Assembly: GCA_019637355.1 (NCBI GenBank)
Contig: JAHBVT010000001.1
Location: 3,069,192-3,133,191, forward strand
Source of the DNA: Gemmatimonadaceae bacterium
GTDB lineage: Bacteria > Gemmatimonadota > Gemmatimonadetes > Gemmatimonadales > Gemmatimonadaceae
Direction: 5' to 3'
Length of the DNA: 64,000 nt
In this document: positions 46,207-63,908 of the stretch, piece by piece
Layout: each line of letters begins with the position of its first letter
How positions within the stretch are numbered: the stretch's first letter is position 1
Notes under the pieces: generated by a model
The model's input: the letters and a program-made list of their open reading frames with translations, nothing else
Database searches by the model: none
What the model was told of the DNA's origin: nothing
Program-made: the position numbers and the translations under genes

Positions 46207-46284
46207 ATAGCATGGTGTGCGTGAACAGTCGAGGTGAATCGGCCCGGGTTTGCCGGAGGCTCCACATCGTGAGAGGTTGGAGCC

Positions 46285-47510
<1,226 letters not shown>

Positions 47511-47540
47511 CCGAGTCTCCGGGAATCCCGGGCCGATTCA

Positions 47541-47662
47541 GCTACCAGGAGTCCCACCGACGTGATGCCGCGCGATTCGAGCACGACCACGGGAAGTGTC
47601 GCCAGCGCGGCGAATACCACCAAGCCTTCGAGTGTCGACTTCGACTTCTGAGGCCGTGTCAT
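47541..47662 (-). pseudogene. N-terminal stump of a voltage-gated channel-like gene
   Basis: An ATG at 47662 opens a frame reading TLEGLVVFAALATLPVVVLES and ending in GLLVA exactly at the IS3 boundary. This resembles the first helix of bacterial ion-channel proteins. The rest is not on the other side of the IS, which suggests an IS-linked deletion. Too short for certainty. Confidence 0.45.
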
Positions 47663-47707: not shown

Positions 47708-48514
47708 CTAATTGGTCACCTCTGCCGCGACCGTTGCCTTGGAGACACCTGTGGGCTGGTCCTCTGTCCTGACGCGCTGCGCTTTGCGAGCGACGCGCGC
47801 GAGACTCCGCCTCGCAGACTCGGCCTTCTCACCTTCGAGAATCTCGCGCTTCAGGACGTCGGTGCGAAGCACCGCCTGAATGAGTTCCGAGTCGATTCGC
47901 GTGTCAGGATTGAGGCGACGAAGCTCGCGACGGAGAACACCAACCACAGAATCGCTGCATACAAGTGCCCCGATTGCGTACTTACTCAACGCCTCCTGCT
48001 GCGCGGCAAAATCTTCGAGATGGCTCTTCAGCCAGCCCTCCTTCGAGAGCAGCCATAGCAAGGCAAGGTCTTCGTCCTTGCGAGGACTCAAGAGCGAAAG
48101 GTCGACTTCTGCGACAAGCGTGTGCTCAATTGGTTTTCCGAAGCCGACTCGATACACGAGCCAGCGTGTTCCGTTCGTGAGCGTTACCCACTCGCAACCT
48201 TGGTTTGCTGCGTAGTCCACCGCCTGCTTAACGTGATTCTCCTTGAGTCCGAGTCCTGCGGACTTCACCTCGATAAGCCACGCAAGCTTGCCATCGAGCT
48301 TTACCGCGAGATCGCAGTACGTGCCCCGAATTGCGTGCTCGGATGTGACCTCGGCGTACTTGTCGTATCCAAGAATCTCCGCGAGGATGTCCTTAACGAT
48401 GGTCACCGTATCAGCCTCGGTGACATCTCTCGCGCGCGCCCCGTCGAGAATGGGCTGAAAGCGCTTCAAGCCAGCTGCGAGGCGGGAACTGACCTTTGCG
48501 GGAATCTTAGACAT
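47708..48514 (-). CDS. HsdR N-terminal-like PD-(D/E)XK nuclease
   Basis: 268 residues from ATG 48514. The type-I-restriction R-subunit N-terminal domain is evident: ILGYDKYAEVTSEHAIRGTYCDLAVKLDG with the active aspartate near residue 68, then WLIEVKSAG giving E82-x-K84, and VKQAVDYAANQGCEWVTLTNGTRW. No helicase motor is attached. Lies 155 bases downstream of the Cys/His-rich gene on the same strand; could be the nuclease of that module or an independent gene. Base composition is visibly less GC-rich than the backbone. Confidence 0.82.
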   Translation of the reverse strand: MSKIPAKVSSRLAAGLKRFQPILDGARARDVTEADTVTIVKDILAEILGYDKYAEVTSEHAIRGTYCDLAVKLDGKLAWLIEVKSAGLGLKENHVKQAVDYAANQGCEWVTLTNGTRWLVYRVGFGKPIEHTLVAEVDLSLLSPRKDEDLALLWLLSKEGWLKSHLEDFAAQQEALSKYAIGALVCSDSVVGVLRRELRRLNPDTRIDSELIQAVLRTDVLKREILEGEKAESARRSLARVARKAQRVRTEDQPTGVSKATVAAEVTN

Positions 48515-48669
48515 GGCACCGAGTGTTGAATAATTCGCTTCTGCGGAGGGCGAGTAGGGCCGCTGCATCCTAACATAAAGTGAAGCACTGGCCTCACAAT
48601 CGCTACTGCGCCTGAGCTCCGAAACGGAGACAGCGACGAAGGCCACCGATGATGATAATGTGCCCCAAC
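48515..48669. promoter_or_regulatory. Spacer between nuclease and Cys/His-rich gene
   Basis: 155 AT-richer bases. It should hold the nuclease gene's own promoter, or nothing if the unit is one operon. No clear terminator hairpin was found. Confidence 0.25.
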
Positions 48670-50802
48670 CTAAACGAGACGCTTGGTTCCGAGCACCGAC
48701 TTCATTCTAGCTCTCTCGGCTCGGTCCGATCCGTGTCGCAGCACGAAAACGACCTTCCGCGTCCAGCCCAAGTCAGCCTCGACGATACTGTGCGTGGCAT
48801 CCCGCGCCGAGCGCCACGATTTTGCCCGCATCGCATCTTCAAATAGCTCATTCGCCGGAGTTAGCCACTCCTGTGCGGGTGCTGAACGCGGCCGCAAGTT
48901 AGCACAGGTTACACAAAGCTTCTCAGGTGCAGCACGATCAGCGGCGCACACGTGTCGCCCGCAGGACGTGCATTCAAAACGATGGCGGTCACACGAGCGC
49001 CGCTCGCACACTGGGCATTCGTGAGTCCCTGTTAGCGAGAACGCGGCTCCATCGACGTGGCAGGTGGTGCGATGGGACTCGCACGCCTTCTCTCCGCGAC
49101 GATCGCCGAGTTCGGACAGGTGCCTGTCGCAGTGAAGGGCGAGATCTTCGGCACATATCCCTAAGTGTTCAGCACACGCCATCGCGCCGCAGCTCGAGCA
49201 CGGTGAGATTTCATCGACCGCGAACACCGCGGTAGGCTCGTACGCACACACCGCCCTGTCATTGACGCACACCAAGCGTCGAGAGCGATCGGTACGCCGG
49301 AGGTGCGTCGAGCAGTGAACGTGCCCATCTACTTCGCAACGCGCCTGGTGGTCCTCACACACAACTCGCTCACATGTTGCACACCCCGACACCTCGTCAG
49401 GCCCCACCAACTCGTTCGATCCTCCCTCGCAGCGCCGTACACATCGGGCGCAGAAGCGCCTAGCTCCGCGCGGCGCGTCAGCGGCAGAGTGAGAAGCGTG
49501 GCTATCGCAGACCTTGTCTCCACAAGTCGCGCACATCGCTATGCAAGAAGTGCAGGCGGGATGCCCTCCATCCTCGCACTCATCCTCGTGCGAACTACAA
49601 TGTGAGCGGAGGCACGACACGCAGGTGCGAGCGTGTGCGTCGCACGCGGGCTGCGAGTCCACGTGGCAAGCCGCGATTCCGTGCTTCTCACAGAATGAGT
49701 CCTCGCACACCGAGCACTCACGATCACACGCAGAGCAGGTCACGTGATCGTGCCGGCAGACCGACACATCCTTCGGAGCCTTCGCGCCACAAGCTGGACA
49801 GCCAAAGTGCCAGTGTCTGTCGCCAGCAAGCACGCGCTCAGCAGTCGCCTGTCCACGATGTCCGTTCGAAGTCAGCGTCCAATGCGCCCGTTGAACCAGC
49901 ACCTGCCATTCGGTAAGCTGAACTGGGTGGACGACCGCACGTACGTCATGGCGATCGCGTTCCTCTGCGAGCCGCCTGTCGCGCTCAGCCTCGAACACGC
50001 GCCTCGCATCACGATCGGGGATGGCAGTTCCGCGGCCGCCGCCCTCCTCCAGCATAGACTGATAGTATCGCTGAATGCGACCACTCTCGTGGGTGAACTC
50101 CCGCTCGGCCTTCTGGCGCAGGCGCTCGATCTGGGGCTCCAACGCAACCCTCAGATCCCCAAGCATACGGCTCACGAGATCTGAAGCGGGCATCGCGGTC
50201 GCTACTGGCGGTCCCTGAATCAGGGCGCGAGACTGCGCAGATAAGAGCTGACGCTCACACTCGGTGGCGATGTCCGCGCCCAGCGCGACTCCTGAGACTG
50301 TGTCATACACCTGGCTCTCCACCAGATGCTCCTCGAGCGTCGCCCCTGCGCGAACTGCGACACGAGCGGTAAGGCGCCCCACACGATGAATCGCGATGGA
50401 TGACTCGGCTTCAGCGGCCTGGCCACGCTTCACAGATGCCGGAAGCGAGGGTTGCGCACTCGCCTCGGCCTCCTGAGCGCCCACAGAGCCGGCAAAGTAG
50501 CGCGCGCCGCGCCCACGGACCGCGGCGATGAGCTGCTCAACAAACGCGCTGCCGACGATGGCCATCTCGGCGTCGGCATCCGCTTGGATTGCCTCAAGTG
50601 AGAAAGCCAGCCGCACATTCGAGCGGTTTCCGAACGTGCGGCGATCAGCAACCGGGATCGTCAGCTCATACAAATGCGGTGAGAGTTCGGTGAGCGAAGC
50701 ACCCGTATGTGCGGCGTAGCGATCAATCAGATCACGAACGTGGCGGTCCCCGAGCGTCTCGTGTTCGAGGCCTTCGGGGTGGCTCGACGCACCTTCGCTC
50801 AC
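48670..50802 (-). CDS. Large Cys/His-rich protein, helicase partner
   Basis: 710 residues. The first ~330 residues are Cys-free and begin HVRDLIDRYAAHTGASLTEL, loosely like YqhG, the neighbour of the SNF2 helicase YqhH in Bacillus. From about residue 340 to 640 come many CxxC...H/C units such as CPACG, CSACDRECSVCEDSFCEKHG, CATCERVVCEDH and CTSCGRHVC, enough for several zinc ribbons or RING-like modules. Its ATG overlaps the helicase stop by 4 bases. Likely a DNA- or protein-binding scaffold for the helicase. Family not recognised. Confidence 0.7.
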   Translation of the reverse strand: MSEGASSHPEGLEHETLGDRHVRDLIDRYAAHTGASLTELSPHLYELTIPVADRRTFGNRSNVRLAFSLEAIQADADAEMAIVGSAFVEQLIAAVRGRGARYFAGSVGAQEAEASAQPSLPASVKRGQAAEAESSIAIHRVGRLTARVAVRAGATLEEHLVESQVYDTVSGVALGADIATECERQLLSAQSRALIQGPPVATAMPASDLVSRMLGDLRVALEPQIERLRQKAEREFTHESGRIQRYYQSMLEEGGGRGTAIPDRDARRVFEAERDRRLAEERDRHDVRAVVHPVQLTEWQVLVQRAHWTLTSNGHRGQATAERVLAGDRHWHFGCPACGAKAPKDVSVCRHDHVTCSACDRECSVCEDSFCEKHGIAACHVDSQPACDAHARTCVSCLRSHCSSHEDECEDGGHPACTSCIAMCATCGDKVCDSHASHSAADAPRGARRFCARCVRRCEGGSNELVGPDEVSGCATCERVVCEDHQARCEVDGHVHCSTHLRRTDRSRRLVCVNDRAVCAYEPTAVFAVDEISPCSSCGAMACAEHLGICAEDLALHCDRHLSELGDRRGEKACESHRTTCHVDGAAFSLTGTHECPVCERRSCDRHRFECTSCGRHVCAADRAAPEKLCVTCANLRPRSAPAQEWLTPANELFEDAMRAKSWRSARDATHSIVEADLGWTRKVVFVLRHGSDRAERARMKSVLGTKRLV

Positions 50803-52934
50803 GAGGACGCTCGCACGAGGGGCGCCTCCGCATCAGCGTCAATCTCAATGAGCATCATAGGTAGCGAGTCCGCCTTCACCATCAAGTGGACTGCCCGCTG
50901 CCGGTGTGTCAGGCCAGAGATGCGATAGACGGGCCCGTACTCTCTCACGTGATCCTCCTCCACGTGCGCGTGCTCAAGCGCCTCCAGAATCTCGTTCTCG
51001 TGAAGGCCAATTGCTTGACGCCGAGAGTCGACGCCCTGCTTCTTCTCGAGAAGCCGTGTTCCATAGCCAAGACGAACACGCGAGGCAGGCGGCAAGTGCC
51101 GAAACTCGCGTTCAAGCCGCATCGCATTGTCATCTGCCGCAATATCGGAATTCAGCTGCTCTTGGAGCAATCCCTCGTCACGGCTCGCAGTGATCCGTTG
51201 CCCAATACCATCGATGAGACGCTCAAACTCTTCCTCCGTACCGGCCTCGAGGAACTTGGTCGTCAGTTCGGTCTCAAGTGCGTCAGCCCCTCCAAACTCG
51301 CCAAGAATGACATCGAGCTCCCCGACGACCAACTCGAACAGCTTGATCTTCTGGTCAAGGAGCTTGAGCACGTGCGCCTCAATCGTCTGCTCAGCGGCCA
51401 GGTTGATGATGTGCGCGTCCCTCGTCTGACCAATCCGGTGGATGCGGCCGATACGCTGCTCGACAATCATTGGATTCCAGGGCAACTCATAGTTCACCAG
51501 AACATTGCAGAACTGGAGATTCAACCCCTCAGTGCCAGCGCGCGTCGATACAAACACGGCGTCAGGAGTGTTCTTGAACGCGTTCAGGCGCTTCACTCGC
51601 TCGTCTCGGGAAAGTCCCCCTTGATAGATCACGGCGCGTCGCCCAAGCGATTCCACCGACTGTCGAATCAGATCCAACGTTGGCAAATGCTCGGAGAATA
51701 CGATGACCTGCTCAGTGTGCGTCCCGAGGAGGCGCTCTAGAGTCTGGAGCTTAGCGTGCTCGCTTACATCACGAGCGAAGCTCGCTAGCTTCAGCGCGTG
51801 CTGCCGGTACTCTGGAGTGATGAACTCACCCTCAGCCATTCGCTCCAGCGAAACGCCAAGTGCGGTGGACGATGAACATAGCCGCCGACAGAGGCGCATA
51901 AGCTCTAAAGTGAGAATCCCTTTTCCTGTGTTGCGCTTTCGCCGCGCTCGATCTTCCTCTGCCTCTTCTCGCGATGGCTGGATGAAGCCCTTCCGATAGA
52001 GCTCTCGTAGGTAGCCAACCGAAGCCTGATACAACGCGCGCTCTGGCGGAGTCAACCGAGTGATTGGGTGCAGCGGTATTCGCTTGGGCAGTTCGAGCGC
52101 GTGAGCGACGCTAGAGCGACGAGTGCGGACCATGACCTGAGAGGTCAAGTCTTTGAGCGCGCCCGGGTCTTTCACGCGTCGCCGATCGCCTCTCACGAGA
52201 TAGCGCTGCGCGAACTCTGTCCAAGTCCCTAGCTGTCCCGGGCGCAGCAAGGTGATGAGGTTGTACAGTTCACGGAGGTCGTTCTGAAGGGGCGTCGCGG
52301 TCAGCAGGAGGATGTAGTTTCGCCGAATCTCTTGAATAAACTTGTACGTCGCCGACGACTCGTTTTTAAGCTTGTGCGCTTCGTCAAGGATGACGAGGTC
52401 CCATTGGTGACGGAGGATGGCCTCACGATGCTTTTTGGTACGAGCTCGGTCGTACGAGGCGATGCCCCGTGTAACGCGCCGCCATTCGTCGGGGCCCGTG
52501 GGCGCATCGAAGTTCTCAAAGAACTTTGATTCCAGCTCGCCCTGCCACTGATCTACGAGCGCTGCTGGCGTGAGAATCAGGATGCGCCGAGCCAGTCCGC
52601 GGACGACGAGCTCTTTTAGAATGATGCCCGCTTCGATGGTCTTTCCGAGCCCGACCTCGTCGGCGAGGAGCGCGCGCCCTCCCATCTGGCGGAGAACGGT
52701 AAGAGCGACATCGATCTGGTGCGGCAGCTCCTTTATGGTATTCGCGTTCAGCGTGATTAGGGAATCGAATCCTGGAACAAGAGACAGGCGTTCCGCCGCG
52801 CGGCGCAGGTCGAACCATTCACGGCTGTCAGGTTCCCGCTGAAGAGCGCTGGAGAACTGGGCCAATGATGTCTCGTCGACTGTCCACAACTGGGTAAGTG
52901 TTCGCATGGGTGTCGTGGGAACTCGCGGACTCAT
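50799..52934 (-). CDS. SNF2/RapA-like DEAD/DEAH helicase
   Basis: 711 residues from ATG 52934; MRTL at 52907 is an alternative start. Full SNF2 motor: Q-like LPHQIDVALTVLRQMGG, Walker A ADEVGLGKTIEAG (near residue 91), DEAHKLKN, TATPLQNDL, and motif VI VEQRIGRIHRIGQ. The first ~65 residues are family-specific. Likely a DNA translocase. Coupled to the Cys/His-rich gene by a 4-base overlap, so the two form a unit. Its 5' end runs into a half attC site. Confidence 0.92.
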   Translation of the reverse strand: MSPRVPTTPMRTLTQLWTVDETSLAQFSSALQREPDSREWFDLRRAAERLSLVPGFDSLITLNANTIKELPHQIDVALTVLRQMGGRALLADEVGLGKTIEAGIILKELVVRGLARRILILTPAALVDQWQGELESKFFENFDAPTGPDEWRRVTRGIASYDRARTKKHREAILRHQWDLVILDEAHKLKNESSATYKFIQEIRRNYILLLTATPLQNDLRELYNLITLLRPGQLGTWTEFAQRYLVRGDRRRVKDPGALKDLTSQVMVRTRRSSVAHALELPKRIPLHPITRLTPPERALYQASVGYLRELYRKGFIQPSREEAEEDRARRKRNTGKGILTLELMRLCRRLCSSSTALGVSLERMAEGEFITPEYRQHALKLASFARDVSEHAKLQTLERLLGTHTEQVIVFSEHLPTLDLIRQSVESLGRRAVIYQGGLSRDERVKRLNAFKNTPDAVFVSTRAGTEGLNLQFCNVLVNYELPWNPMIVEQRIGRIHRIGQTRDAHIINLAAEQTIEAHVLKLLDQKIKLFELVVGELDVILGEFGGADALETELTTKFLEAGTEEEFERLIDGIGQRITASRDEGLLQEQLNSDIAADDNAMRLEREFRHLPPASRVRLGYGTRLLEKKQGVDSRRQAIGLHENEILEALEHAHVEEDHVREYGPVYRISGLTHRQRAVHLMVKADSLPMMLIEIDADAEAPLVRASS

Positions 52935-52966
52935 CGCGAGCGTCGGCTGCAAGCGTCGTTATCTGG
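52935..52966 (-). other. Half attC site (R''-L'' arm) of the kinase cassette
   Basis: On the minus strand this reads CCAGATAACGACGCTTGCAG, the R''-L'' arm of the local attC type. Its first nine bases are the exact complement of the kinase cassette's own first bases (GTTATCTGG at 53876-53868). The matching L'-R' arm is not found downstream; the helicase gene starts there instead. A broken cassette end. Confidence 0.65.
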
Positions 52967-52974
52967 CGCGCGCA

Positions 52975-53853
52975 CTACTCGGCAGGTGAGTTGAGATCGC
53001 GCCACATCTCCAGTGATGAAGCTGTGCGGTAGACCGCATGCCGGCGAAGCGCCTTCTCGAGGGCAAAGTTATAAGGGGCGGGAAGCGTTAACGCGAGAGC
53101 GCGCGGAGCTCCCGCAAGGACCTCCTCAACTGTGAAGCTGAGCTCCTTGCCGAGCGCTAGCTGGAGAAAGAGTAGCCCCAAGTGATAGATGTCCACCCGA
53201 TAGTCAATCGGGCCGAACTCATCGGGGTCAAGAACCTCAGGCGGGAGCATCCACTGCGCGCGAGTATTCTCAACGCGCAAGTCTCCCGCGACCTTTGCGA
53301 CGCCGAGATCCGCCAGCTTGAACTGAATCGCCTGATACTCATCCGGGGCGACCTCGTCGTACGCGTACGAGGTAAAAACATTGCCCAGGTGAATGTCTTG
53401 ATGAACGAGGCCGGCACCGTGAACGTGTGCGACAGCCTGCAGAATGCAGCGCGCAACCGGACGTCCCCAGTCTCCCACCAAATAGTCAGGCAGTGAGAAA
53501 AGGGAGGAAACCGGCTCCTCGCAGCGCTCCGTGACAATGTAGAATGTGTCCCGATACTCAAAGGCATCGTACACGAACGTGATGAACGGGTGGCGCAGAA
53601 AAAGCAGTTTCTGAAACTCGGCCTCTGCCTTTGCGCGAACTTCCTCGTACGATCCGACCGGCTTTAGTACCTTCGCGGCCAGCTGATTGTCCCATACGTC
53701 AGTGCAGGCGTATGCGACACCGAAATGGCCCTCGCCAAGCTGCTCACCCATGACAAAGGTGTTGCCGGTGGCGAGGCTAGTGATGACCTCTCCGGGCTCG
53801 GGAACCACTACACGCTTCAGCTCACCCAGTGGTCCTGAGACTTCCTTTGACAC
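52975..53853 (-). CDS. Ser/Thr protein kinase-like protein in an integron cassette
   Basis: 292 residues from GTG 53853 with a GGAGAGG site. Eukaryotic-type kinase motifs: Gly loop LGEGHFG (39-45), AAKVLK lysine 61, HQD in place of HRD (151-153), metal asparagine 158, DLG in place of DFG (182-184) and PPE for APE (204-206). Catalytic Asp and Lys are kept, so activity is plausible. No sensor or membrane domain. The gene fills a single cassette: its left border is the R' box 15 bases before the start and its stop lies 9 bases before R''. Confidence 0.85.
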   Translation of the reverse strand: MSKEVSGPLGELKRVVVPEPGEVITSLATGNTFVMGEQLGEGHFGVAYACTDVWDNQLAAKVLKPVGSYEEVRAKAEAEFQKLLFLRHPFITFVYDAFEYRDTFYIVTERCEEPVSSLFSLPDYLVGDWGRPVARCILQAVAHVHGAGLVHQDIHLGNVFTSYAYDEVAPDEYQAIQFKLADLGVAKVAGDLRVENTRAQWMLPPEVLDPDEFGPIDYRVDIYHLGLLFLQLALGKELSFTVEEVLAGAPRALALTLPAPYNFALEKALRRHAVYRTASSLEMWRDLNSPAE

Positions 53854-54018
53854 TGATCCTCTCCGGTCCAGATAACGTGTGCTTCTGCTGCGAGCGCTTC
53901 CATAGTTGGTATGAAGCGGCGGCTGGACCTCCGCCCATCCACGGGTGCAAGGTTCTGCCCCATACCATCTACCGTGCTCGCCGTCTCGCGACGGGGCACA
54001 CTGCGGAGGCCAGCCGCC

Positions 54019-55062
54019 ATGGATATGATAGGCATCGATCTCCACAAGCGCGAGAGCCAGCTCTGCATCCTCGACGGGCAGGGCGGCGTCACCGAACGAC
54101 GCATCGTCACGAGCCGTGACCGCTTCACCGCGGTGCTGGGCGCGCGTCCGCCCGCGCGGATCCTCGTCGAGGCGTCGACCGAGAGCGAGTGGGTCGCGTG
54201 TCACCTGGAGGCGCTGGGCCACGCGGTCGTCGTGGCGGATCCGAACTTCGCGCCGATGTACGCCACGCGCAGCCGCCGGGTGAAGACGGACAAGCGCGAT
54301 GCGCGGACCCTGGCTGACGCGCTCCGGCTCGGCGCCTATCGTCCGGCGCACCGCGTCTCGGCGGCGCGGCGGCATGTGCGCGCCGAGTTGGCGGTGCGCG
54401 AGGCCTTGGTCCGCACACGCACGCGATGCATCGCGCTCGCCAAGGCCCTCGTGCGCCGCGACGGCCTGCGCGTGCCGAACAGCACGGCCGCGTGGTTTGT
54501 CGAACGACTCACCGCGCTCCCGCTCTCGCCGGTGCTGGCGGCCGAGCTCGCGCCGCTGGTCGCGATCCTCGCGCCGCTGAACGTGCAGATCGCGGCCGCC
54601 GACGCGCGCATCGCGGCGCTCGGGCGGACGGACCCGATCGTCGCGCTGCTGCAGACGGCCCCCGCCGTCGGGCCGGTGACGTCCAGCGGCATCGTCGCGA
54701 TCGCGGATGACATCGGCCGGTTCCCGTCGGCGCACCAGTTCGAGGCCTTCCTCGGGTTGGTGCCCGGGGAGCGGAGCTCGGGCGAGAAGCGGCGACTCGG
54801 CCACATCACGAAGGCGGGCAACCGGCGCGCGCGCTATCTCCTGGTCGAGGCGGCGTGGCGCATCCTCCGCTCCAAGTCAAGCGACACCGCGGTGTTGCGG
54901 GCGTGGGCGCAGCGCATCCTGCATCGCCGCGGCACGAAGATCGCGGCGGTCGCGCTGGCGCGGCGGCTCGCGGGCATCCTCTATGCGATGTGGCGGGACC
55001 AGCGGGCGTACGACGCGGGCCACCTGCGGACGCCGCAGCCCGTGCCGGCGTCCGCCGCATGA
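54019..55062 (+). CDS. IS110/IS1111-group transposase (DEDD recombinase)
   Basis: 347 residues from ATG 54019, GGAGG site upstream. N-terminal DEDD domain: MIGIDLHKRESQLCIL (first Asp), ILVEASTESEW (Glu), TDKRDARTLADAL (Asp pair). C-terminal Transposase_20 domain with TAPAVGPVTSSGIVAIADDI and the serine region LGLVPGERSSGEKRRLGHITKAGNRRAR. Full length; appears intact. Confidence 0.92.
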   Translation: MDMIGIDLHKRESQLCILDGQGGVTERRIVTSRDRFTAVLGARPPARILVEASTESEWVACHLEALGHAVVVADPNFAPMYATRSRRVKTDKRDARTLADALRLGAYRPAHRVSAARRHVRAELAVREALVRTRTRCIALAKALVRRDGLRVPNSTAAWFVERLTALPLSPVLAAELAPLVAILAPLNVQIAAADARIAALGRTDPIVALLQTAPAVGPVTSSGIVAIADDIGRFPSAHQFEAFLGLVPGERSSGEKRRLGHITKAGNRRARYLLVEAAWRILRSKSSDTAVLRAWAQRILHRRGTKIAAVALARRLAGILYAMWRDQRAYDAGHLRTPQPVPASAA

Positions 55063-55319
55063 TCGATGGGTAAGGGCAGGACCTGCGTGGGATCGAGATG
55101 ACTGAATCGGGAGTGGTGAGCGCGACGCATTTTATGGCCGCAGGTGAGAGCCGCCCCATAGTTGGCGCCACCATTCCTTCGCAGACCCCAATGCGCCGAG
55201 GCCTCGGGCCTCACGAGCGAGCGCGAACAGAAGGATGAGCAGCACCTCGAGCAGCGCAGGCACAACTGAGTCGTGCAACAGCGTCAACGCACCTGGGGCT
55301 TGACGCGGGCCGCCGCTTC
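55063..55319 (+). ncRNA. Candidate bridge-RNA region in the IS right end
   Basis: IS1111-group elements carry their guide RNA in the 3' non-coding end. Here CCATAGTTGG (55156-55165) repeats the left IS junction (53900-53909), and GCGAGCGC-n2-ACAGAA (near 55217-55232) resembles the rejoined target GCGAGCGC-TTC-ACAGAA. These could be donor and target guides. Pattern match only; no fold computed. Confidence 0.35.
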
Positions 55320-55419
55320 ACAGAAAAATGCGGTTGTGGGGCCGCTGCCGTCCTTCCGCATCGTGGAGCAGGGGCCCCACAACCGCTACCGGATCTGCGC
55401 TTGTCGGCAGCAAGCGTCG

Positions 55420-55935
55420 TTATGGCGCAGGAGCCCGCTGCGCGCACTCATCGAGGACGGCAATCACCGTGTCGAGCACGGCGACAACGTCCCACAACTC
55501 ATCATCGTCGAGCGCGGGGTCGTCGTCCACGCCGGGGTCATCGGAATCCTTGCCAATGACCGCATCGAAGACGGCGGCAATCAGGTGCGGCTGCGGCGAC
55601 CCATGGAACATCTGCTCGGCTGGATAGCCGGCGTCGACGAGGGCCGCGGCGTCCGCGATGCGCTTTTCGGACCGCTCAAACTGCGCCGAGATCTGATCTT
55701 CGGTGGCGGGCCGGGTTCCGGGGCGATGCTCGCGGTAGATCTCGTAGCACGCAACCATGCAGTCTCGGGCGACTTCCTGCGCGTCCTCGCCGAGGTGGTG
55801 CGTGAAGCCGAGCACGAAGCCGGTCAGCTCGTCTTGAAAGGGGCCGGACCTAGCCTCGAGCTTCGCCCACTCCTTCGGCGAACTCCGCATCACGCGCGTC
55901 CAGGTCGCAGATACCTGCGCCGGTGTGAGTTTCAT
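55420..55935 (-). CDS. Integron-cassette protein, unknown (171 aa)
   Basis: 171 residues, MKLTPAQVSATWTRVMRSSPKEW, mostly helical and acidic towards the C-terminus (DDPGVDDDPALDDDELWD). No family recognised. The start lies 17 bases from the R' box of the preceding attC and the TAA stop sits inside the R'' box of its own, the compact layout of an integron cassette. Confidence 0.7.
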   Translation of the reverse strand: MKLTPAQVSATWTRVMRSSPKEWAKLEARSGPFQDELTGFVLGFTHHLGEDAQEVARDCMVACYEIYREHRPGTRPATEDQISAQFERSEKRIADAAALVDAGYPAEQMFHGSPQPHLIAAVFDAVIGKDSDDPGVDDDPALDDDELWDVVAVLDTVIAVLDECAQRAPAP

Positions 55936-55951
55936 CTATTCGTCAGGTAGT

Positions 55952-56051
55952 CGCCATAACGTTCGCTTCTGCTGCGGACACTCCAATAAGATGCGCCGGC
56001 GTAGCCGGCGCTTCAATATCGTGGCCGTCGGCAGCAAGCAGCGTTATGCGG
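55952..56051 (-). other. attC site
   Basis: 100 bases. Plus strand CGCCATAACGTTCGCTTCTG on the left and CAGCAAGCAGCGTTATGCGG on the right, with a central GCGCCGGC/GCCGGCGC palindrome. Minus-strand R'' is CCGCATAAC, the exact complement of the 5' end of the cassette it closes (GTTATGCGG at 56537-56529). Confidence 0.87.
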
Positions 56052-56499
56052 CCGGTTCGCGAAGTGGCGTGCCAAGGGCGCGGAGGACGGCCCCGGCTCT
56101 CTCAGCACGAATTGCATTGCTGCATGAACCCATGTTGATCCGTAGGTTCCGATCCGCATCGTCGAGCAGGATAAGCCAGCGCTCGCCGACAGCTAGGCGA
56201 CCCCCGCACAAGCCCTCCGTCGTGAAGAGCCACACCGAGGTGGTGTCCGGAACGAGGCCCTTCCAGACCTGGCGCGAGGCGACGCGGACGTGCTGCGCCG
56301 GAAACGGGTGGCGAGCGTCGGGGTGCATGAGACGCGCGGTGTCGGATACAGCAACGACTTCGGCGATAAAGATCTCACTCGAATTGCGGATGCGCTCGTC
56401 GAGCGAGAGCTGAACGACGCAAGTGCATCGGAGCTCATCTACAGCCTCGCACTGAGGGGGTACGAGGCCCAGCAGGCCGATCAGGATCAGCTGTTTCAA
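56044..56499 (-). CDS. Secreted NTR/TIMP-like domain protein in a cassette
   Basis: 151 residues: weak signal peptide LILIGLLGLVPPQC, then CTC, SSEIFIAEVVAVS, QVWKGLVPDTTSVWLFTTEGLCGGRLAVGERWLILL and MGSCSNAIRAERA, the cysteine and strand pattern of bacterial TIMP/netrin-like OB folds. Likely exported and disulfide-bonded; ligand unknown. Stop TAA lies inside the R'' box of its attC. Confidence 0.65.
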   Translation of the reverse strand: MKQLILIGLLGLVPPQCEAVDELRCTCVVQLSLDERIRNSSEIFIAEVVAVSDTARLMHPDARHPFPAQHVRVASRQVWKGLVPDTTSVWLFTTEGLCGGRLAVGERWLILLDDADRNLRINMGSCSNAIRAERAGAVLRALGTPLREPAA

Positions 56500-56528
56500 T
56501 GGTGGCCCTCATTCCGAGGTATCTTGGA

Positions 56529-56600
56529 CCGCATAACGCCCCGCCGATAACCTGCGGGCGCCGAAGGCGACCGTCAGGTTCATCGGCTTGTTAGCCAGAC
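56529..56600 (-). other. attC site (short type)
   Basis: 72 bases: minus strand begins GTCTGGCTAACAAGCCGATG and ends CGGCGGGGCGTTATGCGG. Arms GCCGAT-AACCTG and its partner differ by two extra bases on the R'' arm, the extrahelical bases of a working attC. R'' GTCTGGCTAAC is the exact complement of the first 11 bases of the cassette it closes (58022-58012). Confidence 0.9.
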
Positions 56601-56610
56601 CCGCTTCGTG

Positions 56611-56985
56611 TCAAGACCCCGCTGTGCGACTTGTGGTTCGTCCCCAACCGGCCAAGAGCGGGATAGCCACTATCAGCGCGTAGTAGAGGTGGACAGCGGG
56701 CTTGTAGTACCCGTCCGCAGGCCTGAACGCCATGACGATGAACAGGTAGTCACCGAGCACCGCGATGAATAGCCAAACGAGCGCGACGAGCGCGAAATAG
56801 GCCAGCGTGCTGCCTCGAAGTTTCTTGAAAGCGACCCAGAACGTGATGGCCGCCCCAATCGGAGCAATGATCCATCCGATAAGGTTCACCGGCACGAGAA
56901 ACACAAGGATGATGCCGAGGACATAGCCGATGAGCCAGAGGACAAATCCCCAGCCGAGGCTGTCCCGCACTAATTGCCTATTCAT
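56611..56985 (-). CDS. Small membrane protein, second gene of a two-gene cassette
   Basis: 124 residues from ATG 56985, overlapping the previous stop (ATGA). Four hydrophobic helices (FVLWLIGYVLGIILVFLVPV, LIGWIIAPIGAAITFWVAF, YFALVALVWLFIAVLGDYLF, LYYALIVAIPLLAGW). Family not recognised. Coupled to the cyclase-like gene, so possibly its membrane partner. Confidence 0.7.
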   Translation of the reverse strand: MNRQLVRDSLGWGFVLWLIGYVLGIILVFLVPVNLIGWIIAPIGAAITFWVAFKKLRGSTLAYFALVALVWLFIAVLGDYLFIVMAFRPADGYYKPAVHLYYALIVAIPLLAGWGRTTSRTAGS

Positions 56986-57983
56986 ACCTTCGTCCTCGTG
57001 CGCGATTGGTCCGGGCCGTTCTGTTCCCACCACTTCAGCACTCGCAACGCGCGAAGAGTGTTCCACCGGCTTGGCGCATCGATGGGTTCAAGCTCAAAGA
57101 ACGTCTTCCCTTTGTACGAGTACTCCAAGAACCAGCGACCGTCCTCGCGCTGCCGTGAGTGAACGATATCGATCGCCTCTGATAGGCGAGGGTCGCGAGG
57201 CGCATCGACCGCCTGGAAGTAGTCAAGAGCCCGGAGAATGTCGTAGTGCCAACGCGGTGGGAACACAAAGCGCTTGAAATCGGACTTGATGACATTCCCA
57301 GTCCGATGCGATCTGAACAGCCGATGAGCCAACAGGAACTCGCGACCGCGCTCTGCGGCCGTCTGCGCTCGCGCATCGCCTCCGCAGTGGAGTTCGAAGA
57401 GGCGGAGGCCTTCGAGCACGCAGATTGTCGTGTTCATCGAAGCGTGTGTGGCACCGAGCGGGAGTCTACAGTTCCATCCCCCGTCGGGCATCTGCACCCT
57501 GAAGAGATGGTTCGCGATGGTTTGGATGCGCGCATCGTCAATCCTGAAATGGGACAGGATGGAGAGCACCATCCCTGTGATGCACGTTTCGCTCTGGTCG
57601 TGCCTTCCGTAGTTGATACCGCCGTCTTGCCGGAGCCCGGCCTCGAGTAGGAGTCCGCACGCTCTTCGTGCCTGCGGATTGTCTGCCGCCAAGCCAAAAT
57701 CGCGGAGCAGGAGCATCGTGTATGTTGTGGACGTCCACTTCGGTCCGTAGAGTCCCCCGTCAGCTGAAGCGCCACTGCCAGTCCTTCTGCCCCACGTGCC
57801 TTCCGGGTCTTGCATAGCAAGCAACCGAGCGCCCCAACCAACTACTGCAACTCTATTGCGCTCCCGCTCCAAAACCCGCGGCGACGGCCTGGCGAAATCG
57901 CTAAGGGTTTGCCACCGAATCGCTGGATCTCCGTCGAGAAGCCAACGGATCACTCTGCGCGGTTGCTCCGTCACTGCTGCCAA
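56982..57983 (-). CDS. Squalene-cyclase/prenyltransferase-fold protein in a cassette
   Basis: 333 residues. Repeats of the alpha/alpha-barrel type: LLAMQDPEGTWG, LFRVQMPDGGWNC, HSRQREDGRWFLEYS, each with the Q-x(3-5)-DG-x-W core of squalene-hopene cyclase and prenyltransferase repeats. No DxDD acid motif, so cyclase chemistry is doubtful. Possibly a lipid- or peptide-binding barrel. First gene of its cassette. Confidence 0.75.
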   Translation of the reverse strand: MAAVTEQPRRVIRWLLDGDPAIRWQTLSDFARPSPRVLERERNRVAVVGWGARLLAMQDPEGTWGRRTGSGASADGGLYGPKWTSTTYTMLLLRDFGLAADNPQARRACGLLLEAGLRQDGGINYGRHDQSETCITGMVLSILSHFRIDDARIQTIANHLFRVQMPDGGWNCRLPLGATHASMNTTICVLEGLRLFELHCGGDARAQTAAERGREFLLAHRLFRSHRTGNVIKSDFKRFVFPPRWHYDILRALDYFQAVDAPRDPRLSEAIDIVHSRQREDGRWFLEYSYKGKTFFELEPIDAPSRWNTLRALRVLKWWEQNGPDQSRTRTKV

Positions 57984-58011
57984 GGCTCCGTCTGATGTTC
58001 CATCGGTGTGG

Positions 58012-58151
58012 GTCTGGCTAACGTGTGCTTCTGCTGTGAACGCTCAATAAGAAGGGTTTGGCGGGGCGTCCGCAACCAGCCGTCCCCATCACGGACGCCC
58101 CGCCAAACCCACTCCGCACCGCGTTCATCAGCAGCAAGCGTCGTTATGGCG
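58012..58151 (-). other. attC site (long type)
   Basis: 140 bases: plus strand GTCTGGCTAACGTGTGCTTC on the left, CAGCAAGCGTCGTTATGGCG on the right, and an inner perfect stem GGGTTTGGCGGGGCGTCCG/CGGACGCCCCGCCAAACCC. The right arm has one extra base, placing R'' on the right and the reading direction on the minus strand. Confidence 0.88.
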
Positions 58152-58327
58152 CGCGCCTATACAGATAGCGGGAAAGGCGAGATCCATGGCACACGAACGG
58201 CTTCTGTTCGCGTGACGATGAAGGGCAGTAGCTGTCCCAAGCGTCTCATGCAAGCACGCGGATGCTGAAACAAATGGATATAGCCTGGGACTGCACTTAG
58301 CGTATGCGCGAGAAGGAAATGTCGCAC
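58152..58327. other. 3' spacer of the PRTase cassette
   Basis: 176 bases between the HD/PRTase stop and the attC. No gene supported; a short frame on the plus strand has no recognisable product. Confidence 0.3.
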
Positions 58328-60001
58328 TCAAGTCTCTCGCTCAACGAACACCTCGGCTGACCGACACACATCACAGTGTCCGTCCGAGCCCTCTTCCCAG
58401 TAACTGATGTCCCGAGCGGTACTTAGTACGTCAACAGAGATGTCGTCCACGTCGCGAAATAACGCTTCAGCATCGCCAGCGAGAAGAAGAGCAAAAATGT
58501 GTACGACGGGCGCAGGGCCGCCCCGAGCGCGAAGTCGCAGTACGGTCTCGGCCGCTGCCGATCCGGTTCCTACAAGGTCGTCCACGACTAGTACCCTTGC
58601 TGGAGTTGCATCTCCGAGATCCATCTCGTAGTCGGTGGTCGCGGACTGCGTGCCAGGCTCTGCAGCAGCTGAGCTCGACGCGAACGTATATGTAAAGGGA
58701 ACCCTGAGTGACAAGCCGATGATGCTCGCCATCTGAGCGCCGCAGGTTCCAACGCCAATCACGCGCTCGATGCCAACATTCCGATAGTGTTCTGCGGCTC
58801 CGCGCCCGAGATCGCTGAGGAACTGGCCGTCACCGAGCAAGTTGCCGAAACGATAGTAGCGATTGCAGTGCCATCCCGTTCGCAGCGCAGTATGTGCGGC
58901 GCTGTCCAGAAGGCGACCGCTCGCCTCGCACTCGCTAATCTTGTTGGCCGCGCGCGAGAGAAAGGAATTGCTCCCAGCGATGGTACTAGCCCGCGTCGCG
59001 GGGCCCTGCGGTGTCGCCGCTTGCTGCCTCCGCATGGAAGAGATGTACGTACGCAGTCGCACAGGGAAGTGCTCGATTGCGTGCAATCGGTGATCGGCGA
59101 TTCGGACATCGACGAGTGCTGGGCGGTTCTGCCCCACTCTTAGGAACGGCTTGACGCGTTCAGCCTCTTCGCGCATCCGACGCACGCGGTAATGGTCAAT
59201 GAGAAAGCGAATGCCGTCAATCTCATCCTCCTTCGCCGCATCCGGGAAGCGCGGAAACAACAGGATTCCAACTCCCGCGGTAGCATCGATGCGTACGTCG
59301 TGGATGTAGTAGCAAGCCGCCCAGTGGGAGAGAGTGAGATCATCAAGCGCGTCGGAGGTTAGACGCGAATAGTCATTAATTCGTGAGTAGTCGTTGTCGA
59401 TCTCGTCGGCGAGCCTCAACGCCGCCGCAAGCAGCTTTGCACGCAGCGGAAAGTCCTGCAACCCAACGTCGTCCTCTGCTAGAGAGACAACCGCATTCCA
59501 TGTCTCATCACCGCTGTGAGCCGCACCAATCTTGGCAGCGGTTCCGAACAGCGAATTGTACGGTAACGCATGTCGCAGCGTTGGAATCCCGTCTCCCGGC
59601 GCCGACGCAAGCGCACGCCGAATCAGTGAAATGCAATTCGGCGCGTGTCGTCGCCGCGATTCCTCGAGGCCGAGGCGCGTGGACGTGGGCTCGTAGTGAT
59701 CCCACTGCATCCCCGTATCGTGGATTAGCGCGGCTACGGCGAGGGTCGCACGCTCGAGGTCGCTCAGCTGCTGCTCGCGCGGATGACCCGACAGCACCTT
59801 GCCGAGGATCAAGAGCGCACGCCTTAGCACGCTGTATGAGTGCGATAGGCCGTGGTCAACAAACTGAGTGTGCATCGGAGTCGCCCAGATCGACGCGGAG
59901 TAGTCATACGCGAACTCGATCCAACGATTAAGATGGATTCCACCGGGCATGTGCGGATTCGACACACCCGCCTGATTCACAAAGTCTTCACGCTGTCTCA
60001 T
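58328..60001 (-). CDS. HD domain + phosphoribosyltransferase protein
   Basis: 557 residues from ATG 60001, which overlaps the previous stop by 14 bases (the frame is open 27 codons further). N-half is an HD phosphohydrolase: DHGLSH (49-54), ALIHDTG (H94-D95), H162 and LADEID (D199). C-half is a type-I PRTase with PRPP loop VLVVDDLVGTGSA (near 470). A final CDVC could bind zinc. Resembles HD and PRTase conflict effectors predicted in bacterial nucleotide-based immunity. Last gene of a three-gene operon. Confidence 0.8.
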   Translation of the reverse strand: MRQREDFVNQAGVSNPHMPGGIHLNRWIEFAYDYSASIWATPMHTQFVDHGLSHSYSVLRRALLILGKVLSGHPREQQLSDLERATLAVAALIHDTGMQWDHYEPTSTRLGLEESRRRHAPNCISLIRRALASAPGDGIPTLRHALPYNSLFGTAAKIGAAHSGDETWNAVVSLAEDDVGLQDFPLRAKLLAAALRLADEIDNDYSRINDYSRLTSDALDDLTLSHWAACYYIHDVRIDATAGVGILLFPRFPDAAKEDEIDGIRFLIDHYRVRRMREEAERVKPFLRVGQNRPALVDVRIADHRLHAIEHFPVRLRTYISSMRRQQAATPQGPATRASTIAGSNSFLSRAANKISECEASGRLLDSAAHTALRTGWHCNRYYRFGNLLGDGQFLSDLGRGAAEHYRNVGIERVIGVGTCGAQMASIIGLSLRVPFTYTFASSSAAAEPGTQSATTDYEMDLGDATPARVLVVDDLVGTGSAAAETVLRLRARGGPAPVVHIFALLLAGDAEALFRDVDDISVDVLSTARDISYWEEGSDGHCDVCRSAEVFVERET

Positions 60002-61037
60002 CAGCCTTGTCGGGAACGAGTGAATCTGAATGAGCACGCCGGAGATACTGTATGCGATTTCCAGGCCAGCACAGTGAGTCAAGCCGTCGTCCTTCTACCA
60101 ATATCGGTCGTGCTATATCGAGATCATACAGGGCAATCACCCTTACCACTTGGCCATCGTTGACGATTGCCAACAGTTGAAGCAGGTCAATCTCTCGCCC
60201 AGTGGAGATGACGTCCTCAATAACAACGACATGTTCTCCTCTCGATATGGCATCGCGCAGTCGAGTGGGTGAGAGGAACGGAAAAGGGCCGAGCCGGTCA
60301 ACTACTGCAACTCGGACTTGTGGACCAAGAAGTGCCTGCATCAAGGTCGCAAGCACTGCGGACGTGTTGTTTCCCGTAAGGATGGTCAAATGCTGGTAGT
60401 CTTCGCGGAAGTCGTCGGTATATGCTCTCACAAGCAGGTAAGCAATCTCCAAGGCACGCTCGTGACCCGTAGTCAGGATACGCTTTACGTCAATCCAAGT
60501 GTTTGCGAGAGTGCTGTCGGGCATCCTGCGGTAGCGCCGTCCCTCAGGCGGAGCACGAAGCACTTCTGTCGTTAGCAGCGAAGCGAGATAATCATTGAGC
60601 CAAGCGCGTCGTAAGTCCCGAAAGCTCGCGCCGTGATCAAGCACGTTGCCCGGAGCGCGCCCGGATCCCCCAAGAATCTCGACTACGCGTGCCTCGGGTG
60701 ATGAATCGACCGCGACAATCGTGCAGGGCTGAGCAGACGCTATCCCTGAGTTGCGAACGAGAAGTGATTGCCGCAGGACCAACACAATGGGCCGCGCGGA
60801 TGCAAGCAACTCAATTGGCCGAAGGCGCTCACGATCCGACAAGCTTTGGACGCAAGTCAGGTCGACGAATACGGTGTAGTCTTCGGGTTGCTGCCGGATT
60901 GCAGCTTCCAGCACCTGCAAGTCGCGCTCTTGGCCGTAGTTCAGTCTTGTCCTGTAGAGCGGTTCCGACGATTCATCGTGTATAGCTTCGCGCAGTGCGA
61001 CGTGCAGCGCGTCTACAATGAACAGACGCTCTAGCAT
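59988..61037 (-). CDS. Phosphoribosyltransferase-like protein
   Basis: 349 residues; ATG follows directly after the TAG of the upstream gene. The PRPP motif is HVVVIEDVISTGRE (about 269-282), with the nucleotide-side TILTGNNTSAVLA earlier. The N-terminal ~130 residues are a separate alpha/beta domain (YTVFVDLTCVQSLSDRERLRP). Does not look like pyrE, upp or purine salvage enzymes. Middle gene of the operon. Confidence 0.78.
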   Translation of the reverse strand: MLERLFIVDALHVALREAIHDESSEPLYRTRLNYGQERDLQVLEAAIRQQPEDYTVFVDLTCVQSLSDRERLRPIELLASARPIVLVLRQSLLVRNSGIASAQPCTIVAVDSSPEARVVEILGGSGRAPGNVLDHGASFRDLRRAWLNDYLASLLTTEVLRAPPEGRRYRRMPDSTLANTWIDVKRILTTGHERALEIAYLLVRAYTDDFREDYQHLTILTGNNTSAVLATLMQALLGPQVRVAVVDRLGPFPFLSPTRLRDAISRGEHVVVIEDVISTGREIDLLQLLAIVNDGQVVRVIALYDLDIARPILVEGRRLDSLCWPGNRIQYLRRAHSDSLVPDKADETA

Positions 61038-62024
61038 CTATCGTCTCCTCTGCGCGGAGTCCGGTACCACAAAGTCGATGAGAATCTGCGTGCCCGGCAG
61101 GAATGGTACGCTTCGCGCGGGAAGTGTCTCGATGCGACCGGCGAGACCATCAACTGAGCCAGTACGAGTGCCTTCATCAAGGCGCAACTCAAGTCCGCCA
61201 GAGCGGAGGACGAATCGGCCTCCCCAGCGAACCACCGTCTGCGCAACATGGAAGAGCCCTGGAACGCGCGGTCGGTAGTAGCGAAGCAGCAGCGCGGCGT
61301 GCAACGGAGATGGGGCTGAGAAATCGAGTGCTTGGCGATCGAGTGTCTCAGCGACCCCACTTCCAGAGTCGGTAATCGCAAGACGCACGAGAGTGTGTCG
61401 AATTGCTTGTAGTGCGAGAAAACCTGATGTCCGTCCGCTCCAGCCGACGAGATTCTTCAGAATGTTGTGAATGGCGTGAGCTAAGATGCCCGCCCATTCG
61501 GAGGCGTCACTTGTTGGATCTAGGCCCAAGCGTCGAAGCATTACTCCCGAGAGTAGCAGGTCATCGAGAGAGTGCTGTACGTGCGAGATCGAAGCCAGTG
61601 AATCAAGACGCGTGAGCCTTGGTCGCCCTAGAATAAAACTGTCATCAGGGCGGCCACTCCAATCGATTAGTTCCTCTCCGTCCAGAAAGGCGACGCGCGA
61701 CGCGGCATGGAGGAAGCCGCAACGGAGCAGCTCTGACTGCTGTCGCTCGGACGCTGGGAGTCGACACACAATGGGATGTCCCCGATCGAATGTTGACTCG
61801 AAGAGCGACGCCAAGAGAGTGAGGCCATCGACGTTGAGATAGTCGAATCCGCCAATATCTACTCCAACCGTAGGGCTGTCGCCCGCCGCATGCTCGAACG
61901 TTGGTGCGCGCACAAGAAGGGACTGAATCTCTCGTTGCCGGGCAAGTGCGCTAACGACGTCCCAGCCGAGGCGCTTGCTTGAGCTCGAAGAGGCAAACTT
62001 GAGAAGCGAGAATACACGTGACAC
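61038..62024 (-). CDS. STAS-like + GHKL ATPase protein
   Basis: 328 residues from GTG 62024 with GGGGAGG upstream. Residues ~52-90 (VGVDIGGFDYLNVDGLTLLA...PIVCRLP) look like a STAS domain. ~178-225 hold a GHKL-type N-box (LAHAIHNILKNLVGWSG) and G1 box LAITDSGSGV. No phospho-histidine domain, so not a classic sensor kinase. The same frame stays open for about 220 bases further upstream without ATG, GTG or TTG, so the protein may once have been longer. First gene of the operon. Confidence 0.72.
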   Translation of the reverse strand: MSRVFSLLKFASSSSSKRLGWDVVSALARQREIQSLLVRAPTFEHAAGDSPTVGVDIGGFDYLNVDGLTLLASLFESTFDRGHPIVCRLPASERQQSELLRCGFLHAASRVAFLDGEELIDWSGRPDDSFILGRPRLTRLDSLASISHVQHSLDDLLLSGVMLRRLGLDPTSDASEWAGILAHAIHNILKNLVGWSGRTSGFLALQAIRHTLVRLAITDSGSGVAETLDRQALDFSAPSPLHAALLLRYYRPRVPGLFHVAQTVVRWGGRFVLRSGGLELRLDEGTRTGSVDGLAGRIETLPARSVPFLPGTQILIDFVVPDSAQRRR

Positions 62025-62245
62025 CGAGGAGGCCTCCCCATTGAAACGGCGGACGGTCGCAAAGATGCGAGCAAGGGAGCTGCGATTGCGAAGAGCCCGA
62101 ACTCTATTGCGCCACCAACGTAGCAGCGCAGTGCGCGGAAGGATAGTTTGGGCTGAGGCGCCCGACGCACGGAGTAAACACTGAGCACACCAGGTCCGTG
62201 GGTCAGAAGCGCATCGCAGTATTTCGAGCTCATCCAGTCGCCATA
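62025..62245 (-). other. Leader of the PRTase cassette
   Basis: 221 bases between the GTG start and the IS junction. The gene's frame is open throughout (LDELEILRCASDPRTW near the cassette start). On the minus strand the cassette begins TATGGCGACTGG at the IS edge, which restores GTTATGGCG when the IS is removed. Confidence 0.45.
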
Positions 62246-62361
62246 GAAGTTATGACTGGGCTGGCCCCCCGACCTCTCGTGGGTTAGCTCCCCGAGTGCG
62301 TCGGAGGTGCCAGAGCCACTGGCGACGGTGCGTCGCCCTTCCTGCAACGGAGGACCAGCCC

Positions 62362-63501: not shown

Positions 63502-63775
63502 GAGACAGCTCGGCTCGGGTTCCAGCGGCACGATAGGGAGGACGCGCGGCACACGTTATCGGGTAGCGCTCGCGAGAGCGTGGATCCCCGCGCATAGAAC
63601 GCGCCTGCTCCGGACGAATCCACTTCGTGCCGCTCCGGTCTCCTGGAGACTGACCGGCGTATAGCAGCAGGATTCATCGTCGAAGCCGCCGCTGGGATCC
63701 GAGCCCCTCGCTTCACCACCCTCGACGCGGGAGCGCCGATGTAGCTCGTGCCCTTGACGGATGCCCAGTCATAGC
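63502..63775 (+). ncRNA. Candidate bridge-RNA region in the IS right end
   Basis: 274 non-coding bases after the transposase, where IS1111 elements encode the guide RNA. It contains GCACACGTTAT at 63549-63559, which is identical to the minus-strand attC core at the element's own target site (GCACACGTTATGG when rejoined). CATAGAA near 63593 echoes the left junction. Hairpins such as CGCTCGCGAGAGCG are present. Sequence match only; no expression or fold data. Confidence 0.42.
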
Positions 63776-63908
63776 AACGTGTGCTTCTGCTGTGGACGCT
63801 CATATAAAAAGGGTTGGGCGGGGTGGCCGCAACCAGCCCAGGTCATCACGGCCACCCCGCCCAACCCATCCTTAGCTGCGGCCATCGGCAGCAAGCATCG
63901 TTATTCGG
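63774..63908 (-). other. attC site with IS-damaged R' box
   Basis: About 135 bases: plus strand AACGTGTGCTTCTGCTGTGG on the left, GGCAGCAAGCATCGTTATTC on the right, inner stem GGGTTGGGCGGGGTGGCCG/CGGCCACCCCGCCCAACCC. It is very like the attC at 58012. The left R' core is interrupted by the IS at 62246-63775. Confidence 0.83.

What the first reader, a model, noticed from the sequence alone, without database searches (positions are those of the whole stretch)
47708..52934. SNF2 helicase + 710-aa Cys/His-rich protein + HsdR-N nuclease: candidate defence module
The helicase and Cys/His-rich genes overlap by 4 bases; a PD-(D/E)XK nuclease with a type-I R-subunit N-domain follows. The Cys/His protein has an unusually dense run of zinc-type pairs over ~300 residues and a YqhG-like N-part. 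The block is less GC-rich than the backbone, sits between an IS and a cassette array, and has no methylase, unlike restriction-modification or DISARM.
Basis: partly seen in the sequence, partly recalled or inferred. Interest (0 to 1): 0.75.

Follow-up and report, generated by a model that had tools for sequence, protein, structure and literature searches.

The report
Split RapA-type helicase with zinc-finger array
Two overlapping genes in a bacterium of the phylum Gemmatimonadota appear to encode the two halves of one DNA-tracking motor related to RapA and to antiviral BREX-type helicases, with a long string of zinc fingers added to one half; it is probably part of the cell's defence against invading DNA, but that function is not yet shown.

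Summary
The conserved object is a two-gene pair: an intact SNF2 motor and the 710-aa Cys/His protein. Their genes overlap by 4 bp in 20 of 21 related loci. By structure prediction and profile comparison, residues ~8-304 of the Cys/His protein correspond to the C-terminal module of RapA/BrxHII helicases. That module is normally fused to the motor; here it is a separate gene carrying ~300 residues of zinc fingers and a cystatin-like tail. The HsdR_N nuclease and an overlooked upstream kinase are local neighbours, not found beside other copies; the kinase lies in an integron cassette. The pair occurs in 28 of 395 Gemmatimonadota, standalone in most; in two it ends a type III restriction operon. 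Haloarchaeal plasmids carry long forms followed by an Mrr nuclease, and short forms beside DUF1156 methylase and often DUF499 ATPase. There the pair seems to be the split helicase of BREX-related systems. Best reading: a two-subunit RapA/BrxHII-like translocase, probably defensive, with optional nucleases. A housekeeping transcription role remains possible for standalone copies. New variant of a known kind.

The parts
50799..52907 (-). SNF2-family motor, 702 aa from ATG 52907 (717 aa if read from TTG 52952); Walker A and DEAH box intact; extra C-terminal region with a sub-threshold DUF4258 match
   Evidence: invariant GLGKT, DEAH and motif VI in 12 homologues
48670..50802 (-). Partner ('Cys/His') protein, 710 aa: RapA C-module + zinc-finger array + cystatin-like tail
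49831..50781 (-). Partner residues ~8-324: module matching RapA 701-968 (REase-like alpha/beta part, then antiparallel beta sheet with a two-helix coiled-coil insert)
48904..49800 (-). Partner residues 335-633: array of CxxC / CxxH zinc fingers (FYVE/PHD/RING-like treble clefs)
48688..48903 (-). Partner residues 634-705: cystatin-like alpha/beta tail
   Evidence: Z 5-6, weak
50799..50802 (-). 4-bp overlap of the SNF2 stop and partner start (GTGA), likely translational coupling
   Evidence: same overlap in 20 of 21 related loci
47708..48514 (-). Neighbour, not core: HsdR_N-type PD-(D/E)XK protein, 268 aa, 155 nt downstream of the partner stop if the ATG start is right
   Evidence: not found at the other pair loci
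52975..53802 (-). Neighbour, not core: Ser/Thr protein kinase inside the first integron cassette
52948..52964 (+). Truncated attC-like half-site in the 5' leader of the SNF2 gene: edge of the cassette array
46232..47543 (+). IS3-family element bounding the block on the left

Best explanation
The pair encodes one RapA/BrxHII-type double-stranded-DNA translocase divided between two polypeptides. The SNF2 protein is the ATP-driven motor. The partner supplies the C-terminal module that RapA and BrxHII carry on the same chain, plus a zinc-finger array. Overlapping genes would make the two subunits in step and they would assemble (inferred). The motor would then track along DNA while the partner's module and zinc fingers recognise a target, such as a phage DNA structure or modification, or a DNA-bound complex (inferred). 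In archaea the pair probably serves as the helicase of DUF499/DUF1156 BREX-related systems or works with an Mrr nuclease. In Gemmatimonadota it mostly acts without a dedicated nuclease and picks up local ones, here an HsdR_N nuclease (inferred). Shown: two-gene conservation, intact motor motifs, relation to the RapA module, the array, and defence-type contexts in archaea and two relatives. Not shown: complex formation, translocation, target, anti-phage activity.
For: Pair adjacency in nearly all complete loci and the 4-bp overlap in 20 of 21. The SNF2 motor's best PDB relatives include RapA. The AF2 model of the partner (pLDDT 84.5) has only two significant Foldseek hits, both RapA (E 4.5e-6, 4.6e-5; next 0.42), collinear with RapA 701-968. 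Independent profile comparison hits the same RapA/BrxHII C-terminal module: archaeal partners 86%, E 4.7e-6; Gemmatimonadota 62%, E 7.6e-5; decoys E 0.02 or worse. PMC12839542 describes the second domain of that module as found only in RapA and BrxHII. Partners from Gemmatimonadota, haloarchaea and cyanobacteria/Rhodovastum are one family (97% and 93%). Context: type III RM operon in two relatives; downstream Mrr in 3 of 3 archaeal long forms; DUF1156 in 6 of 6 and DUF499-type ATPase in 4 of 6 archaeal short-form loci read over a wider stretch, with McrBC or DUF262 genes near several. Sporadic distribution, 28 of 395 genomes.
Against: No conserved nuclease or methylase with the Gemmatimonadota pair; in family f2 it sits in backbone-like DNA and recurs across several genera. 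No DUF499 or DUF1156 in this genome. No PADLOC hit for the partner and only domain-level hits for the motor. Folded alone, the module did not return RapA in Foldseek's listed hits, only in the second-look aligner at Z 6.0-6.7 with large rmsd. Some archaeal short-form loci (Halorientalis, Salinigranum, in the stretch read) show no DUF499 or DUF1156. No complex prediction or experiment was possible.
Confidence: 0.55

Rival explanations
1. A host transcription factor: a split RapA that recycles or clears RNA polymerase, with zinc fingers contacting polymerase or nucleic acid; kept as a lineage-specific accessory gene, not a defence system.
For: Structural and profile match to RapA's C-terminal module; standalone two-gene locus in recurring backbone neighbourhoods of family f2, in most genomes of some genera.
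Against: Patchy distribution (1 of 17 genomes in the window's genus; 28 of 395 in the phylum); frequent plasmid location and repeated neighbouring restriction or BREX-related genes; the closest domain-level models of the motor include defence helicases.
Confidence: 0.25
2. One reading: a three-gene (or, with the kinase, four-gene) restriction module in which the HsdR_N protein is the effector nuclease of this pair.
For: Same strand, short gaps; HSDR_N_2 domain with a D...ExK-like motif; archaeal long forms have a different nuclease (Mrr) in the same downstream position.
Against: No other Gemmatimonadota pair was found with it; its homologue in a relative lies beside unrelated genes; the likely start leaves 155 nt to the partner stop; the kinase is inside an integron cassette.
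Confidence: 0.12
3. A DNA-repair or replication-fork remodeller with no defence role.
For: SNF2 translocases do such work elsewhere (general knowledge); a UvrD/exonuclease gene is divergent to the pair in a few f2 loci.
Against: That neighbour is found in only a few closely related loci; the archaeal context is restriction or BREX-related, not repair.
Confidence: 0.08

Closest known systems
E. coli RapA (RNA-polymerase-associated Swi2/Snf2)
   Same: SNF2 motor; C-terminal module of a degenerate REase-like domain followed by a beta sheet with a two-helix insert
   Different: Module is on a separate gene, with a ~300-aa zinc-finger array and a cystatin-like tail; no RapA-like N-terminal Tudor pair was identified
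BrxHII / BREX-related (BR) helicases
   Same: RapA-like architecture; archaeal members of this pair family sit with DUF499 and DUF1156 as in BR systems
   Different: Published BrxHII/BR helicases are described as single chains (PMC12839542); the window genome has no DUF499 or DUF1156
DISARM DrmA + DrmB
   Same: Precedent for a defence helicase whose zinc-binding C-terminal module is on a separate adjacent gene (PMC12458937)
   Different: YprA-family helicase with OB/DUF1998 module; a different helicase family and a different module
B. subtilis YqhH-YqhG
   Same: From general knowledge: SNF2 protein beside a small protein of unknown function
   Different: YqhG Pfam model does not hit the window protein; only E 0.39 in one archaeal relative
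Standalone HsdR_N-domain proteins
   Same: The window's third gene belongs here (48% to Leptospira plasmid proteins)
   Different: Not found linked to the pair elsewhere

Membership tests
RapA/BrxHII-type helicase | Intact SNF2 ATPase core | tested here: met
RapA/BrxHII-type helicase | C-terminal REase-like + coiled-coil-inserted beta module | tested here: met
   present but on the partner gene; weaker when folded alone
RapA/BrxHII-type helicase | All domains on one polypeptide | tested here: not met
   two adjacent, mostly overlapping genes
RapA/BrxHII-type helicase | N-terminal Tudor domain(s) | tested here: inconclusive
   no Pfam hit before residue ~77; the SNF2 protein was not folded
BREX-related (BR) system | DUF499 ATPase | tested here: not met
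   none in this genome; present beside archaeal short-form pairs
BREX-related (BR) system | DUF1156 methylase | tested here: not met
   none in this genome; present beside archaeal short-form pairs
DISARM | DrmD-equivalent SNF2 helicase | tested here: not met
   242 bits against a cut-off of 950
DISARM | DrmA, DrmB, DrmC and methylase nearby | tested here: not met
   none among the block proteins and near neighbours scanned with PADLOC; distant parts of the genome not scanned
Type I restriction-modification | HsdR motor, HsdM and HsdS | tested here: not met
   only an HsdR N-domain protein; no HsdM/HsdS among the scanned neighbours
YqhG | Pfam PF11079 | tested here: inconclusive
   no hit in the window protein or genome; E 0.39 in one archaeal relative at the matching N-terminal position
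Anti-phage defence system | Protection against phage | not testable with these tools
   needs plating assays

The most novel reading that the evidence does not exclude
A previously undescribed two-subunit defence motor shared by bacteria and archaea: a RapA-type translocase whose recognition half is a separate gene with an expandable zinc-finger array (none in cyanobacterial plasmids, one to three CxxC motifs in short archaeal and Rhodovastum forms, a long array in Gemmatimonadota and longer still in two haloarchaea). It would work alone in some hosts and serve as an interchangeable helicase subunit of BREX-related, Mrr-linked or type III restriction loci in others.
Probability: 0.35. Interest if true: 0.75.

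Novelty: new variant of a known kind. Interest (0 to 1): 0.56.

Why it matters
RapA-type helicases are core parts of several antiviral systems, yet what their unusual C-terminal module does is unclear. A natural split that puts this module on its own gene, with an array whose length varies between lineages, lets the module's role be tested apart from the motor. It would also add a family that current defence-system models miss: PADLOC, NCBIfam and Pfam have no model hitting the partner protein of the window.

Tried and rejected
Three-gene module: HsdR_N not found with any other pair. Kinase as an operon member: it lies inside an integron cassette and was not found in the other genomes searched. 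Exact-peptide scan of genome contigs with the single protein found no relative; the alignment did. Phage records: no match. Foldseek with the isolated N-part against PDB and viral models gave no significant hit. First SNF2 tree had a wrong frame for one row and long branches; rebuilt without RapA. A first profile comparison used a global-alignment flag by mistake and was repeated in local mode with decoys. Promoter and terminator scans gave chance-level counts. Papers found do not describe the split pair; only the held library was searched.

Full report
Observation. All three genes are present on the minus strand as stated. Pfam gives an HsdR N-terminal nuclease-type domain for 47708-48646, an SNF2/Helicase_C motor for 50799-52952, and nothing for the 710-aa Cys/His protein. 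PADLOC and NCBIfam give only domain-level hits to the motor, far under curated cut-offs (for example DrmD 242 bits against 950), and none to the Cys/His protein. The zinc-type pattern is real: 44 Cys and 22 His in 300 residues, with 8 CxxC...CxxH/C units against 1.0 in shuffles of the same stretch.

Setting. The window lies near the end of the main contig of a 3.15-Mb genome; relatives recovered by name are almost all Gemmatimonadota. Left of the block is an IS3-family element with 31-nt inverted ends. Right of it is an integron cassette array: attC-like sites at about 53868 (split from its other half at 55424 by an IS110 element), 55952, 58014 and 63770, plus a truncated half-site at 52948-52964 in the SNF2 leader. 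The same attC left-half pattern occurs 117 times in the genome against 2 for the reversed control, in several arrays, one beside an integron integrase at 784 kb. The kinase therefore sits in a cassette and is not shown to belong to the SNF2 operon.

What is conserved. The Cys/His gene occurs in 11 of 99 near relatives (1 of 17 in the genus) and 28 of 395 genomes of the phylum. In nearly every complete locus the SNF2 gene lies directly upstream, and in 20 of 21 loci the genes overlap by exactly 4 bp. One genome (G027) has an N-terminally truncated orphan. The motor is 56-66% identical to the window's across the two main families, with the ATPase motifs invariant. HsdR_N and kinase homologues were not found at the other pair loci, apart from one weak kinase match kilobases away; the HsdR_N homologue of one relative stands next to an HTH gene in an unrelated region. 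The unit is therefore the pair.

Nature of the partner. An AF2 model from 23 sequences has mean pLDDT 84.5 and pTM 0.52. Foldseek against PDB gives two significant hits, both E. coli RapA (E 4.5e-6 and 4.6e-5), then nothing better than 0.42. The second-look aligner places model residues 8-304 collinearly on RapA 701-968 (Z 7.6, rmsd 7.4 over 242 residues). Residues 335-633 match FYVE/PHD/RING-type zinc fingers and 634-705 a cystatin-like fold, both weakly. The N-part folded alone (pLDDT 85.5) did not return RapA among Foldseek's listed hits, though the aligner again ran collinearly over 238-240 residues (Z 6.0-6.7). Because the structural significance varies, sequence profiles were tested independently. 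Archaeal partner profiles against full-length RapA/BrxHII profiles hit only the C-terminal module (86%, E 4.7e-6), Gemmatimonadota profiles the same place (62%, E 7.6e-5), and shuffled or reversed decoys reached 0.02 at best. The cyanobacterial/Rhodovastum profile alone gave no such hit. PMC12839542 describes this module in RapA and BrxHII as a degenerate REase-like domain followed by an antiparallel sheet with two coiled-coil helices inserted, and reports no other true homologues of the second domain; the secondary structure of the model follows that order.

Relatives. SNF2 plus a partner of the same family occurs on cyanobacterial plasmids (no CxxC), on a Rhodovastum plasmid (three CxxC) and on many haloarchaeal plasmids. 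The profile relation of partners is 97% (Gemmatimonadota to haloarchaea) and 93% (to cyanobacteria plus Rhodovastum). Three haloarchaeal loci have long arrays (676-1245 aa partners), each followed by an Mrr-type nuclease. Of the short-form loci, six were read over a wider stretch: all six have a DUF1156 methylase gene, four a DUF499-type ATPase (one annotated only as AAA+ ATPase-like), and several McrBC or DUF262 genes (significant matches to the antiphage DUF499/DUF1156 models but far under their cut-offs). Two others showed neither in the stretch read. This is the ATPase/methylase/SNF2 triad of BREX-related systems with the helicase divided in two. In G029 and G044 the pair ends an operon holding a DrmD-like fragment, type III Mod, RhuM and type III Res. 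In family f2 it is standalone, in 23 of 102 genomes and concentrated in a few genera, with recurring backbone neighbours. In the SNF2 tree the haloarchaeal long and short forms group together, apart from Gemmatimonadota, so long arrays either are ancestral or arose more than once.

Mechanism. Shown: motor intact, module relation, array, linkage, contexts. Inferred: the two proteins assemble into one RapA-like DNA translocase whose recognition half is the partner; nucleases are optional partners. The main rival is a host transcription-recycling factor, which the f2 loci would suit. Defence is favoured by patchy distribution, plasmid location and repeated restriction or BREX-related neighbours, but no function was tested, and enrichment against random loci was not measured.

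Verdict. Observation confirmed; interpretation partly supported. A new variant of a known kind: a split RapA/BrxHII-type helicase with an added zinc-finger array, not covered for its partner by the defence and family libraries used here.

Noticed in passing
window 52948-63905 and genome-wide: Integron cassette array; the attC-like left-half pattern occurs 117 times in the genome (control 2), in several arrays, one next to an IntI integrase at 784 kb; contig ends fall inside arrays.
   Followed up: partly
window 53911-55062 and 62296-63501: Two IS110-family transposases within the cassette array; the first splits an attC-like site (halves at 53868 and 55424).
   Followed up: partly
window 58328-62024: One cassette-sized stretch (58146-63770) with an HD-CE + phosphoribosyltransferase protein (58328-60082), a second weakly PRTase-like ORF (59988-61037) and an unknown ORF (61038-62024), all minus strand: possible nucleotide-signalling conflict genes.
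   Followed up: no
window 56982-57983: Protein with a partial squalene-hopene-cyclase-type repeat match (E 9e-7) in a cassette.
   Followed up: no
L083 and L084 (G198 contig C11, two places 25 kb apart): One genome carries two copies of the pair on one contig, one beside an SNase-domain gene, the other beside a TM0106 RecB-like nuclease/helicase fusion.
   Followed up: partly
L018 8603-10624: Orphan, N-terminally truncated Cys/His gene without its SNF2 partner.
   Followed up: no
L027 3654-7376 and L028 3153-6944: PbeA-like DEAD helicase plus a ~280-aa unknown gene divergent to the pair in two haloarchaeal long-form loci that also carry a ~297-aa unknown gene after Mrr; conserved set of unknown role.
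   Followed up: no
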